A stretch of DNA of 64,000 bases from Myrmaecium sp. VS I D KN 1 (lineage: Eukaryota > Ascomycota > Dothideomycetes > Valsariales > Valsariaceae): positions 70,135 to 134,134 of the forward strand of contig JADQAV010000060.1 in assembly GCA_019775845.1 (NCBI GenBank), written 5' to 3'. The notes below the pieces were generated by a model that saw only the letters and a program-made list of their open reading frames with translations, had not been told where the DNA came from and made no database searches. Every line of letters begins with the position of its first letter. The first letter of the stretch is position 1. The translations under genes and the position numbers were made by a program. Shown piece after piece: positions 12,280 through 40,969 of this stretch.

Positions 12280-12564
12280 CCACAGGCACCTCAAAAACAC
12301 CAGTAAACAAACCCCAACCCCAACCCCAATCAAAAAGAACTCGAAGTCATCCATTCGGGGGAAAAAAGAACCGTTTCCCCTGTGACGCAATCAAAGCACC
12401 TTAAATACGCCAGCGGCGTTGTCGTTCGTTCGTCTTGAAGCGGGAACGATGGAAGGAAGCGACTCGGAAAAATAAAGTTGGGCGATAAGGGAAAATGGGG
12501 ACGGTACCCGCGAGAAGGAGCTGAAGATGCCAAACGGCTGAAGCTGATCGAGAACGGGAACCAG

Positions 12565-12593
12565 ACGTAAGTAAAAGGCTTTATCCCTTACGT
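12565..12593. repeat. Short inverted repeat at the left edge of the AT-rich block
   Basis: ACGTAAG (12,565-12,571) and CTTACGT (12,587-12,593) form a perfect 7-bp inverted repeat with a 15-nt loop, right where unique sequence gives way to the AT-rich block. It could be an element terminus or a chance hairpin. Confidence 0.4.
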
Positions 12594-15500
12594 TCTACCT
12601 ATATCGATGCCTCTTAAGGGGTAGGCCGGCCGGCGTTAGGCCCCCCTATTACTAACTATAAGTATAGCGCCTTATTATAGTAAATCTAGTAGATCTGATA
12701 ACCTCTACTAGCTTCCTACTATTAAGTAAGAACTAATTTAAGGTAAAGTAAAAGACTATATACCTAATAAATTCTAAATAGGCTCCTAGTACTCCTATTA
12801 TCTCTATTATTATTTTATATATTATAAGAACTCTACTGCGCGAGTAAAATTCTTAAAAGCCTAGTATATAGCGAGGTAAAAGGGAACGTACTAATAAAAA
12901 TAAAAGAAACCTAGATAGGAATATTAGGCTTAGTAGTATATTATTAGTTAGTATATATTAAAAATACCTCTATCCTCTAAATAAAAACTTAAGACTATTA
13001 AGTTATTATTTATTTACCTTAACTATACCGTCCTAGTAATTATAAGTACTAAATCTAGTCTTTTTATTACTAGTAGTAGCGAAGGGACCCTAGATATTCT
13101 TAATAAATTATTTTAGAAGAATTAACTAACCCCTCTTATTTTATAAGGAAGTATATTATCTACTATAATAGATAATAGTAATAGAGATACTAAAGAGGAA
13201 TTTAATATTAATTTTATAATAAGCTCTATTAAGGTACCCCTCTATATAACCCTCTTAAAGCTAAACTAAGCTACTAATAGCTAAAACTACGTAAATCGCG
13301 TCTCTCGTAAAGAAAGAGATATTATAAAAAAGAAGAGGTATAAAGAGGAAAGAAAGGTAAATAAGGGAAAGGCTACTACTACTAATCCTAGAGGAAGGAA
13401 GAAAAATATATTAATATTACTACTAGTACCCCTCTAAAAAGGGACCTAGAGAATATTTATATTAATATAGTATAACCTAACCTCCTTTATACTACCCTTT
13501 AGTAATATTATACCTAATAAGTAGACTAAGCTACTACTAATTAAAATAATTATTCTTAAGTCCTCGCCTATACTAAGTAATATCTAGATAAGAACCTTTA
13601 TACTTTCTAATAAGTTAAAAAGAGGAAGGATAGTAAGTACTTCTAACTTCTTATTAACTCCTCTTATTTAATAAGCTTTAGTAAGAAAAGGAAAGGAAGC
13701 TATCTTATTATATAATTCCTCCCCTCTATCTAGAAATATTATACTAATTATAAACTCTCGCCCCCTAGTAAAGAAGTAAGCGACTTAAAGAGCTTCTATA
13801 ATAAAAGTAGTTATAATCTATAGGGTAGAAAGAGGCCTAGATAATACTTTATTATAATATTTAAATAGATCTTAACTCTATATAAAACTTCTAAAGGAGC
13901 TTAGAGGAGCTAAGTCTAATATCTTAATAAATAAAGTTATTAATACCCTCTACTAGATAACTATATTAAAGAATATTATTATAGCTTTTTTATATAATAT
14001 TAAAGGCTAGCTAGTCTACTACGCGGAACTAAATATTATAAAAGAAATTTATAAAGCGGACTTATTCCTCTAGAGATACTAAGTCTACCTAACTATCTAC
14101 TAAATATAAGAGGTATACGTCTTTATATTTAACTATATTAATAACTCTAGTATAAGTACCCTCCTAGACTAGCTACTAGAAGTTAAGGTAATTAAAGAGA
14201 AACGCGTACCCTTCTAGTTAAGAATCTAAGAATATTAAGAAATTAAGAGAGGGATAGTTATTATAATCTTTATTAGAGCTCCTAGCTTCTACCTCTTAGA
14301 AGTACTACTACGCGAGCCCTCTATAGAATATAAAACAGCCTTTAAGGTAAAATTCCGGGCTATTACCCTAGCTAGTAAAAGATATAAAGTATATAAGATA
14401 GGACTAGTATAGTATAAACTACTATAATATCTTTAATTATAGCCGGTATACTAGCTAGAGTAGCTAAAAAATCTAAATAACTTATTACTAAAGGAGCCGC
14501 CCGATATAGATATCTAAATAAAGTCTATTTTAATTATATTCTTAAATATATAGTTTATTTAGGACCTAGCTTACTTCTGTAATTTATATAATAGTATCTA
14601 AGTCTTAAATACTAATATTACCCTACTTTAAGAAGTATTTCTAAACGAGAATATAGTAGCCTTATTTAAAGCCTCTTTCCCCCTTATCTTTATTACTATA
14701 AATAAGGGCCCCTAAAGGAGCGGTATAGTTATAGTAATTAATAAACGGATTATAAGCTAGGATACCTATAATAGTACTTATATACTTTAAATTAACCTAG
14801 CTAGTAAGCTCCTAATATACGCGATATAGTACTAAGGCTACTAATTAATAGTAATAAGTATATATATATCGGCGGAGGTAAGCTAGAGGCTTTCCTAGCT
14901 CTAAGAAGTTAGTTAAGACCTCTATAACTTCTCCCTCCCTAGCCTATATAATATAATCGGTAGTAATTAAAACGAGGTTACTAGTAGTAATAACCGTTAT
15001 AAATTATTTATAAACCTTATAATAGGTTAGGTTAGTCTAGGTTTTTACTACTTATACTTAACCTAAAGTAGTTTAGGTAATAAATTAATTTAGTTATTAA
15101 TTAGTTTAAGTTATAAATTAGGTTAAGTTAGTTTTACCTAAAGAAAAACTAGATCTAATATTTATATCTTTTTTTCTATAAGAGTTTTTCTAGAGAGCTT
15201 AATAACCTTAGATCCTTCTTATATACTATAACTCTTTTAGTATATATAGTATAAAGATAAGTAGCTTTAAATATTAGTACTAAGAGTAATCTAGAATAGA
15301 ATAATTATTTACCTTTAAAGCGTATTATAATAAATACCTTAGTAGCTTCTTATAAAGCTTTAAAAGTAGTACTTTAAGTCCGTATAGTAGTACTATTAGC
15401 GGCCGTATATAGTAGCTTACGTATAAGCCGTATAAATAGTTACTTAAGTAATATTAAATTAATAGAATTCTAAAGGCGTCGGATTTTAAGTAGCGACTTT

Positions 15501-15655
15501 ACGCCTATAGTAGAGTTAGAGATATTATAGTAAACGTTATAGTAAATATACTAGTAATAGCCTTATAGGCTAACCTATATTTCCCTATATATAATTAGAG
15601 TTATAGTACTACTTTAAGAGCCTTCTAAGCTATCTAGCGATTAATTAATTTAGCT

Positions 15656-15850
15656 AGAGGTTATAGAGTAGAAGTTTTAAATACTACTATATAAGAGCTA
15701 GAGCCTAGGGTCTCTAGTATAGATAGAGGTTATAAGGCCTTAAATACTATTACTTAGAAGTAGGAACCTAGGTTCTCTATTATAAGTAGAGGCTATAAGG
15801 TCTTAAATACTAGTATTTAGGAGCTAGAGCCTAGATTCTCTATTATAGGT
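15656..15850. repeat. Minisatellite, three units of 63-69 bp
   Basis: Three diverged direct copies begin at 15,656, 15,725 and 15,788. Each starts AGAGG-TATA, passes through TTAAATACTA and ends in GAGCCTAG followed by TCTCTA-TATA. The differences between copies are mostly transitions, as expected after RIP. Confidence 0.75.
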
Positions 15851-17211
15851 ATTACTTAGAAGATAGATAATAAGTATAGTAAATAAGATTAGAGAGGAGA
15901 AAATTACGTATTAAATATAAGATACTTATATTAAATATATTTATATACCTAGCCTAGCTATAAGTAGCTAAAGTAAATAAAACTAAAGAAAAAAACGCTA
16001 GCGCTTAGCTAGGTAAAGAGCCCGATTTATAATTAACTTATTATTTATATTAATTTATAAAAAAACTACCCTCTACCTAATATCTAGATAATAAGTATAA
16101 AGATATACTTAAAAGTACTATATATACGGAGAAGTTATTATAGACTAAATAAAAGAAAGCGGAGAGCTAGTATTACTTCTAGGATTTTCGGGATTATTAC
16201 TAAGGAGCCTAAGGAACTTAAGGAGCCTAAGAGGCCTAAGGGGTTTAAGGGCCGGAAGGGCTAGAGGCTTTAGCTAGTAAGGAGGTTAAAAATACTTAGG
16301 AGGTATAAGTAGTAGTATATTACTTAACCTTTTATTAATTAGAGTTAAAGAGATAAAATAACTACTTAGAACGTAATTACTTCTAATTAACTTTTTAGTA
16401 ATTCTAATATATAATTAATCTAATAGTCGTAGATCTTTTAATTAGAGAGTAGTACGTTTTATATAAATAGTTAGGAAATTAGTTATTATATCTTATTAGT
16501 TATAGTAGAAATTATAGTAGATATAATAATAGGTAGAGGACTTATAGCCGAAAATACTAACTATATATACTTTAGTAGCTTCTTATAAAGCTTCTAGTAC
16601 TAATCTTTAGACGCGGAACTTATTATTAGTAAATATCTTAGTATTAGAGATAATCTCTTAATATAAATATATAAATAGTATCTTTAGTAGTAATAAATTA
16701 TAGCTCTTTTAATATTTTCGAATTTTAAATAAGGCCTTAGCTATAAGTAACTATTAAATACTAGCTAGAACTAATAAAGCTTTTACTTATTTCTTATAGC
16801 TTTTAGTTTTTTTAGTATAATTAGTAAAAACTTACCCCTTATATCTATTTTATACGAACTAGACTTTCTATTTTAATTTATATAAACCCTTATAAACGGT
16901 AGATAATATAGCTTACTATTTATAATCTTTAATTTAGACGAGTTCTTATAGTTTACTAAGTCTCTTAAATTCTTTTATAATATCTTACTAATAAGTCTTC
17001 TGCGCGCTATTTCTAGTAGACGTTCTAGTAGATAGTTATATATTAGTAGCGGTCCGTACTATTTATATATAGTTTTACTTATCTATAGGATAAAAACGCG
17101 AAAGTTAATATATATATATAGAAAATCGTAATTTTACGCTATATTAAATAGTTAGTATATATAATAGCTTAAGTATAGTTAAGTTTACTTATAATATAAG
17201 TACTACGAGAC

Positions 17212-17295
<84 letters not shown>
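17212..17295. repeat. (TAG)n microsatellite, about 28 units
   Basis: About 84 bases of uninterrupted GTA/TAG repeat. All surrounding sequence has lost CA and TG, so a CAG or TGC-class origin converted to TAG is possible but cannot be shown from one copy. Confidence 0.9.
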
Positions 17296-18813
17296 ACTCT
17301 TAAAATAATAATATATATAGATAATATCTATATCTTCCTTAAGAACTAGACGGAGGTAGATATTATTTTAACTATCTTTCTTATTTATAGTACTATAACT
17401 AGGTCCTAAATAAACTAGGGGAAATCTTATCTCTTTTTAATAAATAACCCCTAGATATTAATCTCTTAAGTATAATAAGTTATTAAATATAATATATACT
17501 CTTATCTAGATATTTCGGTAGGCGTAGACCTAGAGTATACCTTCTAAGCCTATTAGAAGAAAATAGTAATAAGGTTCTAAAATATTACCTCCTAATAGCT
17601 TAAGCTTTATCTCTCTTTAAAAGGTTAAATCCTAATTACGAACTTACTTCTTATCTTTATCCCTTAATATACCCTCCGCTTCCTTAAGATACTTATAAAT
17701 ATAAGGAAGGACCTAGAGAAGGAGTACTACTATTTTATTTAGGATAATAAATTAATAGAAATATTAAAGGACCTCTAAGTATACCTAAAACCTTATAAGG
17801 AAGGTATAAGGGGTTTTAACCTTACTATAATAAGTAACGCTTTAGCGATTATAGTAGTTATATAAGTAATATAATATCTAGTCTTACCCTAAGTAGCTCT
17901 CGCCCGAGAGATTATTATAAATAATATATTAACTTCCTCTCTTCTTAAAGAAATAATTAGTAACTTATAGCTATAATAGCTAGGGTTTAATTATAAAATC
18001 TTACTAAAGCTTCACCCTATATAGAATAAATAGAAGAGGTTTATAAATAAAATAAATAATAGGCTAGTATAATAATATCCCCTAAATAACTTTAGCGGAG
18101 TTCTTACTATCCGCCCCTAGTACTACTCTTTTCTTAGGATTATATCTAGTATAGGGGTAAGGTAATAAGGCTTTAATATTTAGCGGCTCTTCTAGTAATA
18201 TAACTCCTATATATTTAGTAATTTATAAGATATTATATACTAAGAGCTAGTTATCCTAAGTACTTTATATATATAAGAGGTAGATAAAGCGAGGGCCGCG
18301 ATTAGGAAATTAATCTTAATCCTCCCTAAAGTCTAGTAATAATACCTAGCGAACTAGCCTCTAAGAATTAATATTATTATTATAAAGGAAGAGTACCTTA
18401 CTAGATTATACCTACTTAAGCTCCTTACCTTTAATACTATATATAAACTTCTTATTAAAAAGCGTCTCTAAGGGATTAAACTAAACAGCTGTACAGTCGG
18501 GTTAATTAAGGCTTTTTAAGATTAAATCTACTATAAAGTAACCTTAAAATAGCTATAGAGTACCCTATATAGTATATATTATACGCTAAAGTTTAGGGAC
18601 CTACTCTAGCGCCTACTCTATAATAAAGTATTTATAAGATTCCGGCTTATCTAGACTAGCGCTATATAATAATACTACTTAATAAATAGTAATAACTTTA
18701 TCTATAAATATATTTAAATATATTATAACGTAGTAAAGGAGGTATAGAAGGTCGCTTAAAAAGTTTAGAATAGGTTTACTACTCTAAATAACCTCTAAAC
18801 CTTCTATCCCCTA

Positions 18814-18970
18814 GGTAATATAAATAAATTTATTACTCTATCAGCCTTAAGTCTACTAAAGAAAGTAAAAGGGCGCTAGTAGCTTATATAAAGTAATATA
18901 AATAAATTTATCGCTTTATTAGCCTTAAGCCCGCTAAAGAAAGTAAAAGAGTACTAGTAGCTTATACTAT
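18814..18970. repeat. 78-bp tandem duplication in the LINE-like 3' part
   Basis: Two direct copies with a 78-bp period: TAATATAAATAAATTTAT begins at 18,816 and again at 18,894, and both copies end in a block containing CTAGTAGCTTATA. The period is a multiple of three, so within a coding frame it would add 26 codons. Confidence 0.8.
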
Positions 18971-19464
18971 ACTAATTTAAAAGCTAGTATTTATAAAAGG
19001 TATACCTATTATATTTATAAGATATACTATATAAACTATAGTACCCGAGCGTAATTTATACCCTTATAAATAAAGTAATAAGGTAGGCGATCTTAATTAA
19101 GCGTATTTTTATAACTATAAAATACTATTAAAATAGATAATTTAATAAGATTATCTTTAAGGAGATCTAGGGCTAATATCTAAACGAAATAAGGATATTA
19201 TATAGATCTTAGTATCTACTACTACTTAGGAGGTACTAGTAATATAAGGAGGTAATAATTATAGATAATAAATAATATAATTTATATTCTATAGTCCTTA
19301 AATATTTAATATCTTTAAAAGTATTAGAGGCCGGTCTCTGCCTTTAAAGGAGAAGTATTTAGCCTGCTTAAATTATATATAGGAAGAAGTAGTATATAAA
19401 GTTTAACTCCTTATTCCGGTATTTTATAGAGAGTAGTATACCTCCTACTATATTTAGTCTAGTA

Positions 19465-19672
19465 TAAGGCTTACGGAGCCTTAGGATATTAAGTTACTTA
19501 AAAGCCTTAAGTAAGGTACTAGGAATGTATAGGTAAGGCGTAAGCGAAGCTTAACTTATATAAGTATTTAAGGAGGTAGAGAAAAAGAAGTATCTTATTA
19601 GGATTAATTTATATACTATAAGTAATACTATCTTATTAATATTTAATTACGCTAGTTACTACTCTTTTCTTA
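19465..19672 (+). repeat. Left LTR-like direct repeat (partial)
   Basis: About 200 bases align with 29,408-29,622, including TTATATAAGTATTTAAGGAG and the 3' terminal ACTACGCTAG/ATTACGCTAG block. The upstream limit is blurred by mutation, so the true LTR may be longer. Confidence 0.7.
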
Positions 19673-20649
19673 ATAATTCTAATCCTCCGACCGTATAATA
19701 GGAACTAGCCTAACTATATATTTAATATAAGTTATATAGCGTAATATAAGCTTAGCGCTTCTTAAACCTAGGGGTAAATCTATACCCCCTAGCTTATAAA
19801 GAGAATTACTAGAAGCGAGGGCGGCTTATATTCTAGATAATATTAAGAAGTAGACTATAGAGATCCTAATACTCTAAGTTTCTATTAAAAGAAATAACGC
19901 TAAATAATAAGAGTTATAAATACTTAAGAAATATATCTAAAAAGCTAACTAAAGAAAAAAAGCTCTTTTAAAGTAATATAAATAATAGCTAGATAACTAA
20001 ATTACCTAGTTAAAGAGAGGCTTTCTAGCTTTAGAAGCGAGGCGTCCCTTTAATAATAATAAATTATAAGCTAGGCACGACTATAGGTCGGTAACCTCTA
20101 CGTTAACTAAGAGAGGTTTTATTAGCGAGGTATATATAACTTATAAGTATTCTAAAGTTAATAACTTTAAACCCTATTATAGGAAGAACGTTAGAAAGTA
20201 TACTAAATAGGTTTAATTAGTAAAGACGTCTTTCTAAATTAGCCCTAAGATATACCTCTTAGAAGAGTTAAAAATCCTATAAGTAATATAATTCTTTAAA
20301 GATACCTTATAAAATATATATTATTTAAAGGTAGAGAGCTAGGAAGGCTATACTATTAAAAAATATATATTTATAGAGTTTATAAACTTCTTACTAAACC
20401 TTATAGAGTATCTAGTAAATAAGGAACTCTTAATCTTCTAACGCTATATAGACGCTTACTAGAAGGAGGACTAAGTAATATATAGTTTTATAAACTAACT
20501 AACCTTTCTAGAGTATTAACTACTAGAAGTATATATAGAATAATAGAAGTATATATACTTCTTTATTAAGCTAACTCCGAAGCTAAGGGAGGCCTTTTTA
20601 ACCTATAGCCTTTAGTTAACCCGCTATAAGTTATTTTACTCTTACTATT

Positions 20650-23600
20650 CTTATCTAATTAGTTCTCTTTCCTTAAAACTATCCTAAGTTTACTTAATTT
20701 ACTTTTAATTTCCTAAGTTACTTCGCAGCCTTTAAAAAAGCGCTCTTTATACTTAAGAAATAAACCCTCTTAAATTCTAAGCTACTAAATTAATAGTTTA
20801 ATTAATACTCTTATTATAATTAATTATAGCGCTACCTTACTCTTCGTTAATTCTAAATTCTTTACCGTAAATAACCTCTAACTATATTTAAAATAATATC
20901 CGGAAATCCTTATAATTATAAATAGATATAAATCTACCGCAGGGAGAATTATATATAAAATTAACTTAGAAATTCGTATTAACTAGTATTTAGAAACTAT
21001 AACTCTCTATATTACTTATTTAGTAGAATATTTTATTATTTTAGGAACTTCCTAGCTAAAGTAGTATAACCTAGTTATAAACTAGTTTAAAAATTAGGTT
21101 ATCTTTACCTCTCTGTTTTATTAGGCTAATTATCTTTTTATAAGGGAAGAAATTACCCCTAAATCTTTTATCCTTACTTATATATCTATTACTTACGTCT
21201 CTAATATAGCTTTAGATAAGCTCTCGAAGAAATATAGTACTTAAATATACTTAGTTTCGCTCTCTAATATATAAATATATATTAAAACCCGGAAAAAAGC
21301 CGCCTTTATAACCCCTAAGGAGGAATAGTAACGCCTTAAAGAAATTATTCCGCTATAATTCTATAACCTTTTACCTCTTTTTACTAAAAGAAAAGTTAAT
21401 AAGCTCCCGCTATATCGCTATATTAACTATATAATTATTTTTAAAGACGGAAAAAAGCCTAATTTTAAGCTTCTTTATTCTATATCTAATTTTAAGCTTA
21501 AAGCTCTTAGAGACTACCTTAAATCTAAATTAGTTAAAGGCTTTACTTATCTTTCGTCCTCCTCTTACACCTCTTTAATTCTATTTATTAGAAAACTTAA
21601 AAGCCTTTATTTTTATATTAATTATCGAGCTCTAAATAAAATAACTAAGAAAAACCGTTATCCTCTCTCGCTAATTAATAAATCCCTTTAGAGGCTCCGT
21701 TAGGGTAAAATCTTTACTCGCCTTAACCTCTAAGGAGCCTATAATCTTATTTATATTAAAGAGGGCTACGAGTATTTAACTGCGTTTAGAACCCGTTACG
21801 GCCTTTTTAATTACCTTATTATACCCTTTAATATAATAAACGCTCCCGCAACCTACTAGTAATTTATAAATAATACTTTAAGGGAATTTTTAGATATCTT
21901 TTATATAGTTTATCTTAATAATATCCTTATTTCCTCTAAAAATAAGGAAGAATATAATAATTACGTCCGGAAAGTCTTTAAAAACTCCTTAAAGCCGGCC
22001 TTTATATTATAGGTAAGAAGTATAAGTTCTTTACTTACTCTACTACCTTTATAAGCTTTATAGTTTCGCTAGATAGAATTACTATAGATCTCGTAAAAGT
22101 TACTATAATTTAAAATTAAGAAACGCCTTAAATAATTAAAGAACTATAGTCTTTCCTTAGTTTCGCTAATTTTTACCGTAGGTTTATTAAGAAGTACTTA
22201 TATAAAGCTCGCCCGCTCTTTAACCTCCTTTAGAAAGGTACTACCTTTATTTAAGGTCCTAAATAAGAGAAAACCTTTAACTTTTTAAAAGACGCTTTCT
22301 TCTCTAGCTTAATTCTCCGCTATTTAGACCCTAAGCTAGATACTATTTTAGAAATAAATATATCTAATTTTATAATTTCTAGTATCCTTTTTTAATAGGT
22401 TATATATTTAAATAATAAGAGGCTTCTTTATCTAATTACCTATTACTTATATAAAATAACCCCGCCCGAGTATAATTATAGGATTAAAGATAAGGAGTTA
22501 CTCGCTATCGTTAAATCTCTAAAGAAATATTATTCTTTAGTTTTAAACCTTCGAAAGCCGCTCTTAATTTATACTAATTATTTAAACCTCTCTATTTTTA
22601 CTTTAAAGAGGATTTTAAACCGCCGCTAAGCCCCCTAGATAAATAAACTTTCTAAATTAGACTTCTATATAGTTTTCTACTTAGGGGATTAGAATAAATA
22701 AGCTAACACTTTAATTTAATAATCTAGAGATTATTCTTTACTAGAGGGAGACCTACCCCCTTAAATAATCCTAAGCTTAGAGAAATTTTAAATTTCTAGC
22801 CTTATAATCGTAGTTTTAGAGATCTTATTAGCTTTAGAAATTTACTAAGCTTTAGAATTAAATACTCTTAGATAAGAGATCTTTAAAGCTTTAGAAAATA
22901 AAACTTCTAGATATTATTTAATTAACTTAAGAGCTTACTTAGTAAATTCTAATAGCTTCTTACTTATAAACAGCCTCGTCTACGTCCCGGAAGACCTTAA
23001 TTTCTATTATAAGATTATTTAGTCTTACTATTTATATCTTACTATAGGCTACCTTAGCTATACTATAACTTTTAAAATAGTTTCCTATAACTTTTAGTAG
23101 CCTAAAATAAGAGATACTATTACCCGGTTTATTTATAACTATAAAACTTATAAATATATTAAACCGGTTTAATATACCTCTTTTAGATATTTAAAACCCC
23201 TTAAGGTTCCGTAGCGCCGCTAGGAATCTATCTCCCTTAATTTTATTATTAAGCTCCCGCTAGTAGACTCCTTATATATAATTCTAGTTATTATAAATAA
23301 GTTAACTAAGATAGCTTATTTTATCCCCTACTATATAACTACTAATTCTATATACCTTACGTCGCTTTACTGCGATAACCTTTTTAAGCTTTATAGCTTA
23401 CTTTAGGATTTTACCTCTAATTATAAATCTATTTTTACCTCTTAGTTTACCTACGCCCTTAGTAAGGCTCTTAGTATTAAGCCGAATCTTAGTATAAGTT
23501 TTTATTCTTAAACGGATAGATAAACGGAAAGAGTTAATATAATTTTAGTATAATACCTTTAAGCCTACGCTAATTATTAATAGGATAATTAGGTAGAGCT

Positions 23601-24980
23601 ACTCGCCTTTATAAAATTTACTTATAATAATATAATTTCTATAATAACTAAAGTTACGCCTTTCTTTATAAATTATAGTTTTAACCCTTAGTACTAGATC
23701 CTCTTTAAGGAGGATATATAAACCTTACTATAAGTATTAAAGACTTTTATATACTATTTTAATAGTCTTATAGAATACTTATAGTAGGAAATTTAACTCG
23801 CCTAAGATATTTACTTAAAGTAGGTAAATAAGGATAGAACCCTACCTCTAATTTTTAAACTTAGTAATAAAATCTAGCTCTCCTCTTATCTAAACTTAAT
23901 TATAAGCGCCTAAAGCCTTATAAAATTATAGAAAAGCTCTTTAGTTATATTTATTACCTAGAGCTCCCGAGTACTATAAAGTACTATAATATATTCTATA
24001 TTAACCTCCTAAAACCCGCTACTAATAATCCTCTCCTAAATTAAGAAAAGTACCGCCTTTACCCGTTATTATAGAAGGCGAGGAAGAATACTAAGTTAAA
24101 GAGATTTTAGATATTAAAGTAAATTACCGGTAATTTTAGTACTTTATCTACTAAGTTAGATACTTAAATCTAACCTAAGAACCTTATAAGTTTATTAAAA
24201 ACCTTACCGCCTTTAATAATTTTTATTAGTACTATCCTAATAAACCCTACCTTCTAAATTACGCTTAGAAAGCTTATAAGAACTCGCTTACTAAAAGGGG
24301 GACCTCCTATTATAAAACTTCTAAGAACTTCTTAAAATTTAAAAATCGCCTAAGTCTTTAGGCTATAAATATTACTTAGTATATATCTCTTCTACTTACC
24401 TAATATATAAGTTCTTACTTAGTATATATCCCTCGCGCTTACCTAGTATATAGGCTCTTACTTAGTATATATCTTAGCTCTTATTTAATATATAAGTTTA
24501 TTATCTAACCCTTACTACTACTTAGTAATATCGCCGCTATTTAGTAATATTACTACTACGTAGTATATTTATAATCTTACTCTTTATTATATCGCCGCCG
24601 CCTTATTATCGCCTAATATTTTACTTAATAAACTTACTTTTATTAGGATACGTCGCTACCGTATTACCTTAGACTTATACTTATTTAATACTTTATTAGA
24701 AACCCCGCTTTAAGACCTATAGAATTAAGTAGTACTCTAATAAGACTTTATATTATACTACTCCCTCTCTAAGTATATATAAATCTCTTTATTCTTATAG
24801 TTTTAGATTTATAATTTAAATAATTCTAGTTCTTCCCTCTTAAGTTCTTCTTAAGGATTCGCTCGGCTTTATTCTTACCCTTATACTCTTAGACCTTCTT
24901 TAGGTTAACCTCTTATTACTTATTTTCTTCCCTCTTACCTTTAATTTATAAAATTAGAAGATTAAACTCTACTTAGGATT
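20650..24980 (+). mobile_element. Decayed Ty3/Gypsy element, apparently nested in the outer one
   Basis: The + strand turns noticeably pyrimidine-rich from about 20,650 to about 24,950, unlike the purine-rich flanks that belong to the outer element. Recognisable parts in order: reverse transcriptase about 21,560-21,950 ([27 protein letters not shown]); RNase H-like about 22,290-22,600; integrase core about 23,210-23,350; chromodomain-like about 24,080-24,260. The final part holds a 43-bp tandem repeat and may include the 3' LTR; I could not define its LTR pair. It is broken by RIP but its reverse transcriptase region is the best preserved protein-like text in the block. Family: Ty3/Gypsy chromovirus. 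Confidence 0.65.
24372..24500. repeat. 43-bp tandem repeat, three units
   Basis: TTACTTAGTATATATC begins at 24,372, 24,415 and 24,458, an exact 43-bp period, with a second half containing TTACCTAGTATATA-like text. It lies just downstream of the chromodomain-like part of the inner element, where an LTR or 3' UTR would be expected. Confidence 0.8.
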
Positions 24981-27699
24981 ATCTCCCTCTGTTTCTACCT
25001 TAGTTTAAGAGAACGGTACTGTTATCCGTAATACTACTCCTAATCTTAGAAACCCTAAACCGCTTATATAGAGTATATATCTTTACTAAGCTTAACTTAT
25101 ATAATACGTACTATAGTATCCGGATTAAGGAAGGGGATAAATAAAAGATAGCCTTCTAAACTAAATATAAGTACTTTAAATATATAGTAATACTATTTAG
25201 CCTAACTAATACGCTAGCGACTTTCTAAGCGTATATTAATAAGGCCTTAATAGGCCTAATAAATATTACCTATATAATATATCTAGATAATATCCTAATC
25301 TTCTTAGAAAAAGAAGAGAAGTATATAAATTATATATAATAAGTACTTAAGTACTTATATTAGTACTAGCTATTTACTAAGCTAAGTAAATATAAGTTTT
25401 TTTACTAAAGAGGTTAAGTTTCTAAGGTTTATTATAAGTATTAAGGGCGTAGTAATAGATCCTTATAAAATAAACGTAATTATAGTATAGTAGAAGCCTG
25501 CTTCTTATAAAGATCTATAAGTCTTTCTAGGATTTACTAACTTTTATTACTAATTTATTTATTAATACTCCTACATAGTAGTACTTCTAATAGCTATACT
25601 TAAAGGTAGTAAGAATAGAACTAGTCTAGCCTATTTACCCTAATTAAGGATATATAAGATATATTTAAGAAGTTAGTAACGTACTTTATAACCGTACTTA
25701 TCCTTATCTATTTTAACCTAGAGAAGAAAATTAGGTTAGAAACGGACGCTTTTAAATTTATAATTATAAGGATCCTCTCCTAATAGGATGTTAATAGCTA
25801 GTAGTACCTAGTAGCTTACTAGTTAAGAAAGCTTAGAAATATTAAAGTAAACTATAAAATATATAATTAAAAGCTTCTTATAATTATAGTAACGTTTAAG
25901 TACTAGTATTACTACCTTAATAGTAGCTAGTACTCTATCTAAGTAATTACTAATTATAATAATCTTAAGGGACTTATAACTATTAAATAGCTAAATAGTA
26001 GATAAGTTAAATAAGTAATACTACTTTTAGAATATAACTTTATTATTAAATACTAAGTAGGAAAGCTAAACCCTACTAATAAGTTATTTAAGTATCTAAA
26101 CTACTTTATAAATAATATAATAGAAGTAATAAGTTTACTACTAATACTATAAAATAAACTTAGGTTTATAGGTAAGATAACTATTAAGGCGCTTATAATT
26201 TATACTAAGAATAATATTATAGAGTAGTTCTTATATATAGCTCTAAGTATAGTATTAAGGAGGGCTATTAAGGAGGATAACTCCCTAAAGGAGGAAGCTC
26301 TACTAAGTATTAAGGAACTTATTAAGAAGGCTTAGGAAGAGGAATAACGCTAGAACTAAACTTCTAAGAAATATAAAATACCGGACTAAACTTAGGATAG
26401 TAACGGAGTTTAGTACTATTAATATAAACTATATATATTTAAGGAGCTAGTATTATACGTAGAACTTCTTAAGAAATATTATAATAACCTATAGGCTAGC
26501 TACTTTAAAAATACTAAAACTAAGGAGCTTCTAAGTAGGTACTACTACTAGTCCTTACTTATAAGTAATATTAAGAAGTATATAAATACCTACTAGGAAT
26601 ACTAGTAAGTTAAAAACCCTTACTAGAAACTAGTAAGTAAACTCTAGCTACTACTATTACTATAAGGATTATCGTAGGAAATTATAATAGATTTTATAAC
26701 TAATTTACTACTTAGTAAGTATAATAGTCGCGTCTTTAATATAATTCTTATTATAGTTAACTACTATACTAAAATAGCTTTATACTTCCCGATTATTAAG
26801 AGGGTCTAGGTAGTAAAGCTATTAATAATACTAGAAGAAAGGCTATTTATATAATTTAAAATACTAAAGAATATTATTAGTAATAGGGGGTCTATATTTA
26901 TAAGTAAATATTAGTTATATTTCTACTACCTATATATAATTTACTAGCGCTTTAGTACTGCCTTCTACTTATAAATAGATAGATAGACTAAATAGTAGAA
27001 CTAAATACTAGAATACTACCTTAAGATATACTATAAATAATAGTAGAATAACTAAGTAGATCTCCTATATCTAGTAGAGCTTATATATAATAACGCGGTA
27101 TATAGTACAACTAAAACAACGCTATTTTACGTACTTTATAAATCTAACCTAACTTTATTATAGGACGCTATAGGTAGCGTCTAAGAGATATTAAGAGTTT
27201 AAAAAAGATTTTATATATTAGAGAAGGAGAGGGAGTAGCTAGAAAAGTACTTCTAAAATATATTAAATTTATAAGTAAAGTACTATAATAGGAAGTATAC
27301 GCCTAGGATATTTAAGATTAGTAAGAAAGTATAACTTTTTATTAAAGACTTATACCTCTATTTCCCTAGTAGGAAATTAGTACTACGCTAGATAGGCTCT
27401 TTTAAAATTAAAGATATAGTTAATAAGTAGGCTTATAAGCTAGCCCTACTACTATAATACTAATACTTTTAATTAGTATTTAACGTCTAGAGACTAAAGC
27501 CCTATAAAACTAAATTAAATATATTTAAGGCGTAAGAGCTACCGGGCCTAGAATTAATAAACGAAGATAGTAATTACTACTATAAAGTAGAAGAAATTCT
27601 TAAAACTATAGGTAGGGGACCTAGAAGGAAGTATTATATTAAATAGAAGAGATACCTATATATATATAATTAGTAAGTTAGTAAAGAAGACCTAAAAGA

Positions 27700-29400
27700 A
27701 GTTAAAGAGCTTAAGGACGAATTTAATATATAAATAAGGACTAGTTATAAAATATAAGAAAAATATATAAAGAGTATAAGAATAATATTTATTTATCCTA
27801 GAAGAGAGATATAACTATTATACTAATAATAAGTAATTAGTATATTAGTACTACGTACCTAGCTAATAAGGTAAACCTAGAAAAATAAATTACTAATACT
27901 AAGTAAAAATAGAAAAAGCTCGAAGACTATATAACTACTAGTTAGAAAAGAAAAACTAATTAAGACTAATTTAAAAGAGCTAATCCTATCTTAATCCTAG
28001 TATTAGGAAGTGCTAGAAATACTAATACTAGTACTAAAAAGTATAGAAGTAGGAGTAAGAAACTTCTTACTTTTAATAAAACTCCTAAAGAAAGTATAAT
28101 AAGACGGGGAATAAATAGTAGGGCTATAGATATTATATAAGTTATTAGTACTATAATAGTTAATAAAAAGGAGGCTATATTATAAATAGGTTAGTATATA
28201 GATAAATAATAAGTATAAAGGAGGAGTAACTATACTACGGAGCGCTTTAAGTTATATAAATTCTTAAAGGTAGTAATAGTACGGTTAATATATAGAATTA
28301 ATAAAGTAGGATAATTAATAGTAGAAATAAGCCGCTTATATAGTATAGATATAGCTCTACTTCTCTTCTTTCTCCTTTTAAAAGTAGTAAAGCGCTGCCT
28401 AAAGCTCTTAATAAAATACTTAAAATTATTCTTAGCCTCTTTAGAATTATTAACTATAGCTTCTTAGTATATAAATAGCCTAGCTAGAAAGAAATTATAT
28501 TTAGGAATTAAGTAAAAAGGTACTTAAGTATAGATTAGTAGGAAGAGCGAAGAAGAAGAATAAATAAGAAGTAAGTAAAGTAAAGACTTATAGAGATATA
28601 CTTATATTAAATATAAATATAATATAAGTACTTCTTTATTATAATATTACTATCTATCTAAATATTATATTCGCTATAATTAGCCTAACGCTTAATATAC
28701 TTAAAATAAGTATTAATAGCTAACTACTCTACTATACGCTATAACTAAGCGGTAATTAATATATAAGATAATTATAAAATATTAGTACTATATATAAGGA
28801 AATAAGTATAAGGAATATAGGTATATTATAAGAAGGTTAAATAGTTACTAATAAGGAGTTATAAAGAGATATTCTACTTTATTACCGGGATTAACAGATA
28901 TAGCGCGAGACGAGGATAATATCTTTTAAATAATTATTATATACTAGGAGTAAGGAATAAAAAGCTTATAGAATAATATAGCGGGAGGGTTCTTATAGTT
29001 ATAGTTAATAGCGGGAGATATATAGCGGGGAGAAGTAGAATAATAAGTACTATTATATTTAGAATATTTACTACTTTAGCGGCTTAAGTACGACTTAGTT
29101 ATATTAGATATAATAGTAGATAGCGACGAGCGTTATATAAAGATAATATAAAGAAATAATAACGGACGTAGTAGAAGGAGGTATTATTAACTACTATAAA
29201 AAAGAGAAAGAAGAAAGAGAGAAGTAGTAAAAGTAACACTCTTTTAGGAATAATAAATTATAGTTTATATATATAATATATATAAGCGAAATATAGTAAA
29301 AGCGGAAAGAATAATAGGCTAAAGGCTAGAATAATAGTTAATAATATCTTTACTATTATAATAGGACCTTAAGGCCGTAGAAGCGTCCTTTTTAGGAAAG
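27700..29400. other. Unassigned AT-rich stretch before the right LTR
   Basis: CA/TG-depleted sequence without recognisable protein text on either strand. A pyrimidine-rich island (about 28,330-28,480) on the + strand hints that some of it could read on the minus strand or come from a different source. Confidence 0.35.
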
Positions 29401-29407
29401 AAGATAG

Positions 29408-29622
29408 TTATAAGACTTATAGAGTCTTAAGATATTTAAATCGTCTAGGAGCCTTAGGCGAGACGCTAGGGATATATAGGTAAAATATAAGTAAAGCTTA
29501 GCTTATATAAGTATTTAAGGAGGCAGGGAAAAAGGACTATCTTATTAGGATTAGTCTATATACTACGAATAATACCACCCTATTAATACTTAACTACGCT
29601 AGTTACTACTATTTTCCTAACA
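29408..29622 (+). repeat. Right LTR-like direct repeat
   Basis: Counterpart of the left copy at 19,465-19,672. It ends at 29,622 in CCTAACA, compatible with the usual CA terminus of LTRs, and unique non-RIP sequence starts directly after it. Confidence 0.7.
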
Positions 29623-30353
29623 CCTAGCTAGATAGAATATAAAAATAATTTTCTGCTGGAAAATAGGGACGGTATATACTGTATGTACCTGGGTTAAGAC
29701 GTCGACCACGTTGCGCTTTTTCCCCTTCGATCTGGATCGGTGCTTTATTACCGGATGAGGATTCCTGGGGGAAGAAGGAGGAGAAGGTGAGTGGGGATGG
29801 GAGAGAGAGTGGAAAGGGCAAGTGCGGATGGAGATGAGGTGAGTGCATATATACCACCGCACGTTGCGGACAGCAGCGAGCGTGCGATATGATGCAGAAG
29901 ACGTGCGATCTATAAAGGTAGCAGTATATATAATGGTTTATATATCCCAGAAATACCACGGGTGTGCAAGCAGTTTGTTTTTTGCTGTGGATGCGGTATA
30001 CATGCATATATATAAACATGGAAACGTACAGTATGTTGGTAGACAAGGTATAAGTGGTGTCGTATATTCAAAGCTGACTGGATCGAGCCATTCACTCACT
30101 CACTCACTCACTTACTTGTTGTACAACAGTTTTAGTAGTGGTAGTTGAAAGTACCTATACACATCTAGCGATGAAGCATGTTGTGACCCTAGACCTTCAA
30201 ACACCCCTCCCCACCAGCATCAATACCTTTGACCGCACCATCAACAACCATGCTGACAGTATTCCACTCCCCCCTTCGATCGGCGCATGACTCTCTATCC
30301 TGTACACAGCAGACAGCAGAGAGGCATAATGAATAAACACAACCCCCGGATCT
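29623..30353. other. Intergenic region right of the AT-rich block
   Basis: Normal dinucleotide composition. Contains a CACT-type simple repeat near 30,090-30,112 and A/T-rich stretches but no supported gene; the 3' UTR of the LRR-like gene should lie at the right end. Confidence 0.5.

Positions 30354-36138: not shown

Positions 36139-40969
<4,831 letters not shown>

What the first reader, a model, noticed from the sequence alone, without database searches (positions are those of the whole stretch)
12600..29622. Near-total erasure of CA/TG with CG retained over 17 kb
Reading the block by eye I find only a few dozen CA or TG dinucleotides where random sequence of this composition would hold on the order of two thousand. 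CG, CT and CC remain frequent. This is an almost saturated CpA-specific RIP state on both strands, stronger than the partial RIP seen in many fungi, and it removes nearly every ATG start and TGA stop.
Basis: partly seen in the sequence, partly recalled or inferred. Interest (0 to 1): 0.7.

Follow-up and report, generated by a model that had tools for sequence, protein, structure and literature searches.

The report
Fungal transposon graveyard with CpA erased
A 17,000-base stretch of a fungal genome, made of dead mobile elements, has had almost every CA/TG letter pair turned into TA, most likely by the fungus's own repeat-killing mutation system, and more completely than in the published examples compared here.

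Summary
In 12600-29622 there are 39 CA+TG where composition predicts 1,676. The substrate index is 0.027 against 1.1-1.2 in the flanks, and the edges are resolved to about 5 and 35 bp.
The block is not one thing. A lone stretch with two histone-H3-like relics (12570-19462; no other copy found) is followed by a Ty3/gypsy-like LTR element (19463-29622) interrupted by a second one (20598-25036). All parts are about equally erased, as are most sampled relatives on other contigs.
Close copies differ mainly by transitions (79-94%); the LTR pair shows 41 transitions and 2 transversions. The order of loss is CpA >> CpG > CpT, CpC. RID-like, DIM-2-like and Pre-SET genes are present. Best reading: repeat-induced point mutation (RIP) driven to saturation.
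'CG retained' is misleading: CG is 1.8% of dinucleotides against 7.2-7.5% in the flanks.
The kind is known; the degree is extreme: mean substrate index of RIP-positive windows 0.06-0.10 against 0.44 reported for Neurospora.
Open point: why apparently single-copy DNA is as saturated as repeats.

The parts
12569..29622 (.). CpA/TpG-erased AT-rich block (whole)
12570..19462 (.). lone relic: no other DNA copy found in the assembly, yet 13 CA+TG in 6,856 bp (12607-19462)
16400..16939 (-). broken histone-H3-like sequence A (4 TAG, 14 TAA; core match about 16547-16738); best PDB match centromeric H3 Cse4, E 3.8e-6; Pfam Histone below its cut-off
15191..15502 (-). second broken H3-like sequence B (1 TAG, 4 TAA), 41% identical to A
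19463..29622 (+). outer Ty3/gypsy-like LTR element relic (RT_RNaseH about 25718-26035; SH3_Tf2-1 about 27365-27508, below its cut-off); partial copies on other contigs 74-88% identical
19463..19673 (+). left long terminal repeat as aligned (211 columns to the right one: 41 transitions, 2 transversions)
29409..29620 (+). right long terminal repeat as aligned; may end at 29622 with a 4-5 bp target duplication next to it
   Evidence: last two bases and duplication read by eye
20598..25036 (+). inner, second Ty3/gypsy-like relic inside the outer one (RVT_1 21617-21985; RNase H about 22258-22650; SH3_Tf2-1 about 23889-24020, below its cut-off)
24983..25423 (+). broken reverse-transcriptase match of the outer element (3 TAG, 7 TAA); its first 54 bp overlap the mapped end of the inner element
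12490..12506 (+). left copy of a 17-bp direct repeat flanking the block
   Evidence: 0 of 200 control pairs of flank segments reach 16/17
29658..29674 (+). right copy of the 17-bp direct repeat, one RIP-type mismatch

Best explanation
The block is a small graveyard of mobile DNA that the fungus's repeat-induced point mutation system (RIP; RID-type and DIM-2-type cytosine methyltransferases) has mutated to saturation at CpA on both strands. A stretch carrying two histone-H3-like genes stood first, a Ty3/gypsy-like element inserted at its right end, and a second one inserted into that. Shown: erasure of CpA, mostly C-to-T/G-to-A differences between close copies, a graded order CpA >> CpG > CpT and CpC, sharp edges, similar erasure of relatives on other contigs, and presence of genes of the enzyme families. 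Inferred: that RID/DIM-2 did it, that it happened over sexual cycles, the order of insertion, and that CpG loss feeds the same end product (CG to TG or CA, then TA). Also inferred: the lone H3-like stretch was mutated when it still had sister copies. A process that removes nearly all CpA makes copies converge, so they stay alike enough to keep triggering it; that would explain why it runs to completion.
For: Indices and edges. Copies on other contigs erased too; 320 of 399 sampled 500-bp windows have an index below 0.1 (loci chosen because they match relics). Close copies of the inner element: transitions 86-90% of differences, CG/TA among the commonest dinucleotide swaps. LTR pair, identical at insertion: 41 transitions, 2 transversions; CpG hit at 6 of 8 and 8 of 10 sites. 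About 500-900 times more CpA hits than transversions per lineage (rough). A simple model with complete CpA loss plus about 70% CpG loss comes near GC, CG and CT/AG. DNA-methylase-family genes with long stop-free frames on C4 and C17 and a Pre-SET gene. Of the scored nuclear matches, 34 of 34 retroelement-type RVT_1 and 8 of 8 RVT_2 carry TAA/TAG stops (the tool calls its counts lower bounds).
Against: The 6.9-kb left part has no detectable second copy, although RIP is triggered by repeats. CpG, CpT and CpC are also hit. In four distant outer copies transitions are only 59-64%, and in one of them (L016) CpG is hit no more than CpT. No cross, methylation or expression data exist for this genome here. 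The names RID and DIM-2 rest on domains, length and recalled motifs, not on a tree. The model misfits CC/GG and TA (too high) and AA/TT and GC (too low) by roughly 10-30%.
Confidence: 0.78

Rival explanations
1. A heterochromatin-bound, homology-independent CpA mutator (DIM-2 type, acting also in mitosis) polishes whatever lies in silenced AT-rich DNA to saturation, repeated or not; classical RIP only starts the process.
For: The lone 12607-19462 part is as saturated as the repeats (13 CA+TG to 1,464 TA, against 26 to 2,065 in the three repeat parts; Fisher p 0.33). A DIM-2-like gene is present (its BAH match is just below the cut-off). In Zymoseptoria, Dim2 promotes CA-to-TA mutation in mitosis (PMC8016269, passages), and in Neurospora linker mutation falls to nearly zero without DIM-2 (PMC11969663, passages).
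Against: Edges are 5-35 bp sharp with normal CpA right outside; a spreading mutator should leave a gradient, and CA+TG per kb across the lone part (3, 2, 0, 0, 1, 4, 3) shows none beyond the first few hundred bases. The lone part carries H3-like genes as known mobile elements do, so it could once have been repeated. An 18-kb erased stretch on C5 is almost wholly covered by copies elsewhere.
Confidence: 0.17
2. Ordinary methylcytosine deamination and AT-biased drift in old silent DNA.
For: CpG is reduced as well, the usual mark of deamination.
Against: CpA, not CpG, is the most erased. Transversions between close copies are only 0.9-1.8% per site while about 99% of CpA is gone.
Confidence: 0.02
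3. Foreign or organellar AT-rich DNA, or an assembly artefact.
For: Sharp compositional edges.
Against: The same elements and the same erasure recur on many contigs. C50, with TGA inside reverse-transcriptase frames and so presumably mitochondrial, has normal CA/TG where read: one 3.4-kb locus, index 1.04.
Confidence: 0.01

Closest known systems
Repeat-induced point mutation, Neurospora crassa type
   Same: C-to-T on both strands, CpA first, mobile-element relics, sharp AT-rich blocks, RID-like and DIM-2-like genes present
   Different: More complete at CpA: mean substrate index 0.06-0.10 in RIP-positive windows against 0.44 for N. crassa large RIP regions (PMC6714961, passages). CpG is the second target here; PMC5496416 (passages) gives CpA>CpT>CpG>CpC for N. 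crassa
RIP in Trichoderma reesei
   Same: CpA and CpG hit before CpT and CpC (PMC5496416, passages)
   Different: There measured in crosses, with CpA about equal to CpG; here read from relics, with CpA clearly ahead
Histone-H3-like gene carried by hAT transposons (Pseudocercospora, Cercospora, Sphaerulina; Pyrenophora tritici-repentis)
   Same: Broken H3-like copies in RIP-mutated AT-rich blocks, two in the window stretch; a weak hAT dimerisation match lies in the related C5 block (PMC6710886, PMC3538342)
   Different: No hAT domain found in the window stretch. Few copies: stop-bearing H3-like places on 6 contigs. The three relics inspected carry an intron-like insert, while the P. fijiensis copies are reported without introns
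Dim2-dependent mitotic CA-to-TA mutation, Zymoseptoria tritici
   Same: Same dinucleotide target
   Different: Not shown here; only a candidate for the single-copy part (PMC8016269, passages)

Membership tests
Repeat-induced point mutation | C:G to T:A transitions dominate between copies | tested here: met
   86-90% of differences in four inner copies; 94% and 79% in L007 and L010; only 59-64% in four distant outer copies; LTR pair 41 to 2
Repeat-induced point mutation | CpA/TpG depleted, TpA raised | tested here: met
Repeat-induced point mutation | confined to repeated DNA | tested here: inconclusive
   met for 19463-29622 and the C5 stretch; 12570-19462 has no second copy found
Repeat-induced point mutation | RID and DIM-2 type methyltransferases present | tested here: met
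   PF00145 matches in 609-aa (C4), 1111-aa and 2026-aa (both C17) stop-free frames; the names are by domain, length and recalled motif, no tree built
Repeat-induced point mutation | arises in the sexual cycle from duplicated DNA | not testable with these tools
   needs crosses
Ty3/gypsy LTR retrotransposon (19463-29622 and 20598-25036) | RT and RNase H domains; long terminal repeats | tested here: met
   RT and RNase H for both, SH3_Tf2-1 below its cut-off in both; LTR pair for the outer one; the inner one lacks its left end in this copy
hAT element carrying histone H3-like genes | H3-like sequence, one or two per element | tested here: met
   two in 12570-19462
hAT element carrying histone H3-like genes | hAT transposase domain | tested here: not met
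   no Pfam hAT match in six X-read frames of 12591-19461; weak match only in the related C5 block, just over the cut-off in its C9 copy
hAT element carrying histone H3-like genes | terminal inverted repeats and 8-bp target duplication | tested here: inconclusive
   no inverted match between the likely ends beyond control (12 of 15 against 11-14 in 200 control pairs); the element's true ends are not known, so the 8-bp duplication could not be tested; a 17-bp direct repeat flanks the block instead
hAT element carrying histone H3-like genes | captured from a transcript (no introns, as reported for P. fijiensis) | tested here: inconclusive
   the three inspected relics carry an intron-like insert at one place

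The most novel reading that the evidence does not exclude
In this fungus CpA mutation in silent DNA is no longer tied to present homology: a methyltransferase-linked mutator keeps silenced islands, including single-copy ones, at a steady state where only poorly favoured CpA contexts (mostly CAG and CAC) persist at about 1%, so that CA/TG-free sequence is itself the signature of the silent state.
Probability: 0.15. Interest if true: 0.7.

Novelty: new member of a known kind. Interest (0 to 1): 0.45.

Why it matters
There the mutator's finer preferences can be read from what is left: CAG and CAC make up 75% of survivors against 50% of unmutated CpA, and contexts range from 0.17 to 3.1 times expectation. 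It also gives an LTR pair as an internal control. The equally saturated, apparently single-copy part makes it possible to test whether homology is needed to finish the process, not just to start it. A genome in which every scored nuclear retroelement reverse transcriptase is broken is also a useful case for how complete this defence can be.

Tried and rejected
Lone part as a RIP leak from the repeats: not my leading view, because the left edge is sharp and CA+TG per kb shows no gradient across 6.9 kb (3, 2, 0, 0, 1, 4, 3), although 3 of the 13 lie in the first 270 bp. Lone part as a LINE or LTR element: no Pfam match in six frames apart from the sub-cut-off histone match. 17-bp flanking direct repeat as a hAT target duplication: too long for one (hAT makes 8 bp, PMC6710886), and no inverted ends beyond control; left unexplained. 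Homology of the lone part to fetched relics at protein level: none at E 0.05 with low-complexity filtering on; to C5: at protein level only the H3-like stretches (seen without that filter), at DNA level only short matches of the kind expected between AT-rich sequences. rRNA, other Rfam families or tRNA in the window: none. Naming the species: not possible; the SMC3 gene's best solved match is 6yuf and no closer relative is held, a search for the rRNA failed, and a paper search by assembly size gave one unrelated hit. Print on equally extreme CpA loss: searches listed no paper whose title or abstract start says so; the per-species supplementary tables were not readable here, so I do not claim that none exists.
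Full report
OBSERVATION. In 12600-29622 there are 20 CA and 19 TG, o/e 0.02 each; TA/AT is 1.80, the substrate index (CA+TG)/(AC+GT) 0.027 and GC 0.269. The flanks have GC 0.55 and index 1.11 and 1.20. Composition predicts 1,676 CA+TG. The longest stretch between two CA/TG is 2,423 bp. Change-point fits put the edges at 12568 (12568-12572) and 29654 (29646-29680), with near-normal density right outside. By windows like those used in print (1 kb, step 500; product above 1.1, substrate at most 0.75), 35 of 127 windows are RIP-positive with mean substrate 0.061, and 0 of 91 flank windows are positive.

WHAT IS IN THE BLOCK. The window is C51:70135-134134 of a 25.66-Mb, 66-contig genome. A whole-genome DNA search with the block gave 49 matches on other contigs, 39 of 78 candidates having been scored. 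They resolve an outer element, 19463-about 20612 plus about 25034-29620, interrupted by an inner one, 20598-25036. Several other copies of the outer element have about 1.1-1.24 kb more at the junction, and several other copies of the inner one have a further left-end piece that is missing here (coordinates); a deletion across the left junction would explain both (inference). Reading frames with X at stops gives RVT_1, RNase H and (below its cut-off) SH3_Tf2-1 matches for both elements: Ty3/gypsy-like relics. The outer one has an LTR pair aligned at 19463-19673 and 29409-29620; it may end at 29622 with a 4-5 bp target duplication (read by eye).

THE LONE PART. 12570-19462 has no other match in the genome at E up to 1, except a 43-bp inverted match within itself at E 0.98. 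The tool warns that it skips very common words, so no match does not prove uniqueness. But equally AT-rich queries from the same genome found many relatives: an 18-kb erased stretch on C5 is covered by copies elsewhere except for about 0.2 kb. In the lone part the only Pfam match in six X-read frames is a histone fold, below its cut-off (19.8 against 26.4 bits). The translation with X at stops matches centromeric H3 (Cse4) at E 3.8e-6 and ordinary H3 from about 1e-4. A second H3-like stretch lies 0.9 kb away on the same strand (15191-15502), and a third on C5:69581-69898, where the Pfam Histone score passes the cut-off. With the C5 relic as query, stop-bearing H3-like places also appear on C64, C29, C11 and C66, while the H3 match on C17 is stop-free. 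The C5 block also holds a weak hAT dimerisation match 4 kb from its H3-like relic; in its C9 copy this just passes the cut-off. That the two lie in one element is not proven. H3-like genes carried by hAT transposons and inactivated by RIP are published for Pseudocercospora fijiensis and five other species, one to two per element in P. fijiensis (PMC6710886: abstract, passages, section 9), and with little RIP for Pyrenophora tritici-repentis (PMC3538342: passages; PMC6710886). The window relic fits in having two H3-like copies. It shows no hAT domain and no inverted ends beyond control; instead a 17-bp direct repeat with one RIP-type mismatch flanks the whole block (0 of 200 control pairs). The three inspected relics carry an intron-like insert at one place, unlike the reported intron-less P. 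fijiensis copies. This part is therefore H3-carrying and probably mobile, but not filed as hAT.

MUTATION SPECTRUM. Four close copies of the inner element differ from the window copy at 12-14% of sites, 86-90% of these being transitions. Of C in the window copy, the aligned base is T for 43-48% at CpG, 16-19% at CpT and 14-15% at CpC. For the outer element the two nearer copies give 40-41%, 18-19% and 17-19%. The four distant ones (77-78% identical) have only 59-64% transitions and 21-40% at CpG; in one of them (L016) CpG is hit no more than CpT, so the order is unclear there. The two LTRs, identical when inserted, show 41 transitions and 2 transversions. A model with complete CpA loss plus about 70% CpG loss, started at 50% GC, gives GC 0.288 (seen 0.269), CG 0.0188 (0.0181) and CT/AG 0.089 (0.088). 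It misfits CC/GG and TA (too high) and AA/TT and the GC dinucleotide (too low). So CG is a second target, not a spared one. Transversions are only 0.9-1.8% per site between close copies, so CpA was lost roughly 500-900 times faster; slow decay is very unlikely.

HOW FAR IT GOES. In 33 segments on 18 contigs, 320 of 399 windows of 500 bp have an index below 0.1 and 367 were classed as mutated, below 0.35 (segments chosen because they match relics, some with normal flanks). In 32 loci, 281 of 284 one-kb windows are RIP-positive, mean substrate 0.096, median 0.043. Published means for large RIP regions: N. crassa 0.44 (PMC6714961, passages); 0.2-0.3 in a table that I take to be three versions of one Fusarium assembly (PMC7882544, passages; section 11 read too). 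Those means come from whole genomes and mine from chosen loci, so the comparison is not fully like for like. Four 3-kb stretches taken without regard to relics are normal. Of 39 scored RVT_1 rows, 34 nuclear ones all carry TAA/TAG stops. The other five are four on C50 (three with TGA inside, one stop-free; presumably mitochondrial) and one on C5, stop-free, which I read as telomerase reverse transcriptase from its sequence (recalled, not tested). All 8 RVT_2 rows carry TAA and in most cases TAG stops.

WHAT SURVIVES. In 138 kb with index below 0.1, 378 CpA remain (both strands). CAG and CAC make up 75% of them against 50% in unmutated DNA; relative to unmutated frequencies, contexts range from 0.17 (CCAA) to 3.1 (ACAG). 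Relative to TA, GCAG survives about 30 times more often than TCA[AT] (0.041 against 0.0013; bootstrap 14-67), a ratio that also depends on how many TA were there before.

MACHINERY. PF00145 genes: a 609-aa frame on C4 (methylase only, RID-like), a 1111-aa frame on C17 (methylase, DUF7893 and a BAH match just below its cut-off; DIM-2-like) and a 2026-aa frame on C17 (third gene, DNMT5-like by recall; 945 residues scanned). One Pre-SET gene on C10 would fit DIM-5 (name recalled).

WEIGHING. RIP to saturation explains the spectrum, the edges, the stop codons and the spread over contigs. It does not by itself explain the lone part, which is as saturated as its neighbours (13 CA+TG to 1,464 TA, against 26 to 2,065; Fisher p 0.33). 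Either its sister copies are gone or too diverged, which I prefer because it looks mobile and its edge is sharp; or silent DNA goes on being mutated without homology. The second route has precedent in Zymoseptoria Dim2 (PMC8016269, passages) and in DIM-2-dependent mutation of single-copy linkers between repeats in Neurospora (PMC11969663 and PMC12543289, passages).

Noticed in passing
window 15191-15502 and 16400-16939 (-); C5:69560-69976, C64:253449-253832, C29:83702-84076, C11:804192-804410, C66:1684054-1684415: A small, old family of RIP-broken histone-H3-like sequences; the three inspected (two in the window, C5) share an intron-like insert; separate from the stop-free H3 on C17:41638.
   Followed up: partly
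window 12490-12506 and 29658-29674: 17-bp direct repeat flanking the whole block, one RIP-type mismatch; the left copy lies about 60-80 bp outside the erased region. Cause unknown.
   Followed up: partly
window 17212-17295: Perfect (GTA)28 microsatellite inside the erased block.
   Followed up: no
C50 (53,799 bp), L043/L044: Reverse-transcriptase frames with TGA inside, presumably mitochondrial intron proteins; CA/TG is normal in L043.
   Followed up: no
L034:1-1000 (C24:426078-427077): Unusually low GC, 0.172, inside an erased stretch.
   Followed up: no
L060:4100-7400 (C5:76100-79400): Erased repeats in head-to-head arrangement with inverted copies, recurring in the same arrangement on several contigs; perhaps a fold-back element.
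   Followed up: no
window 36967-39678 (-): An SMC3 cohesin gene; other ordinary fungal genes lie in both flanks.
   Followed up: no
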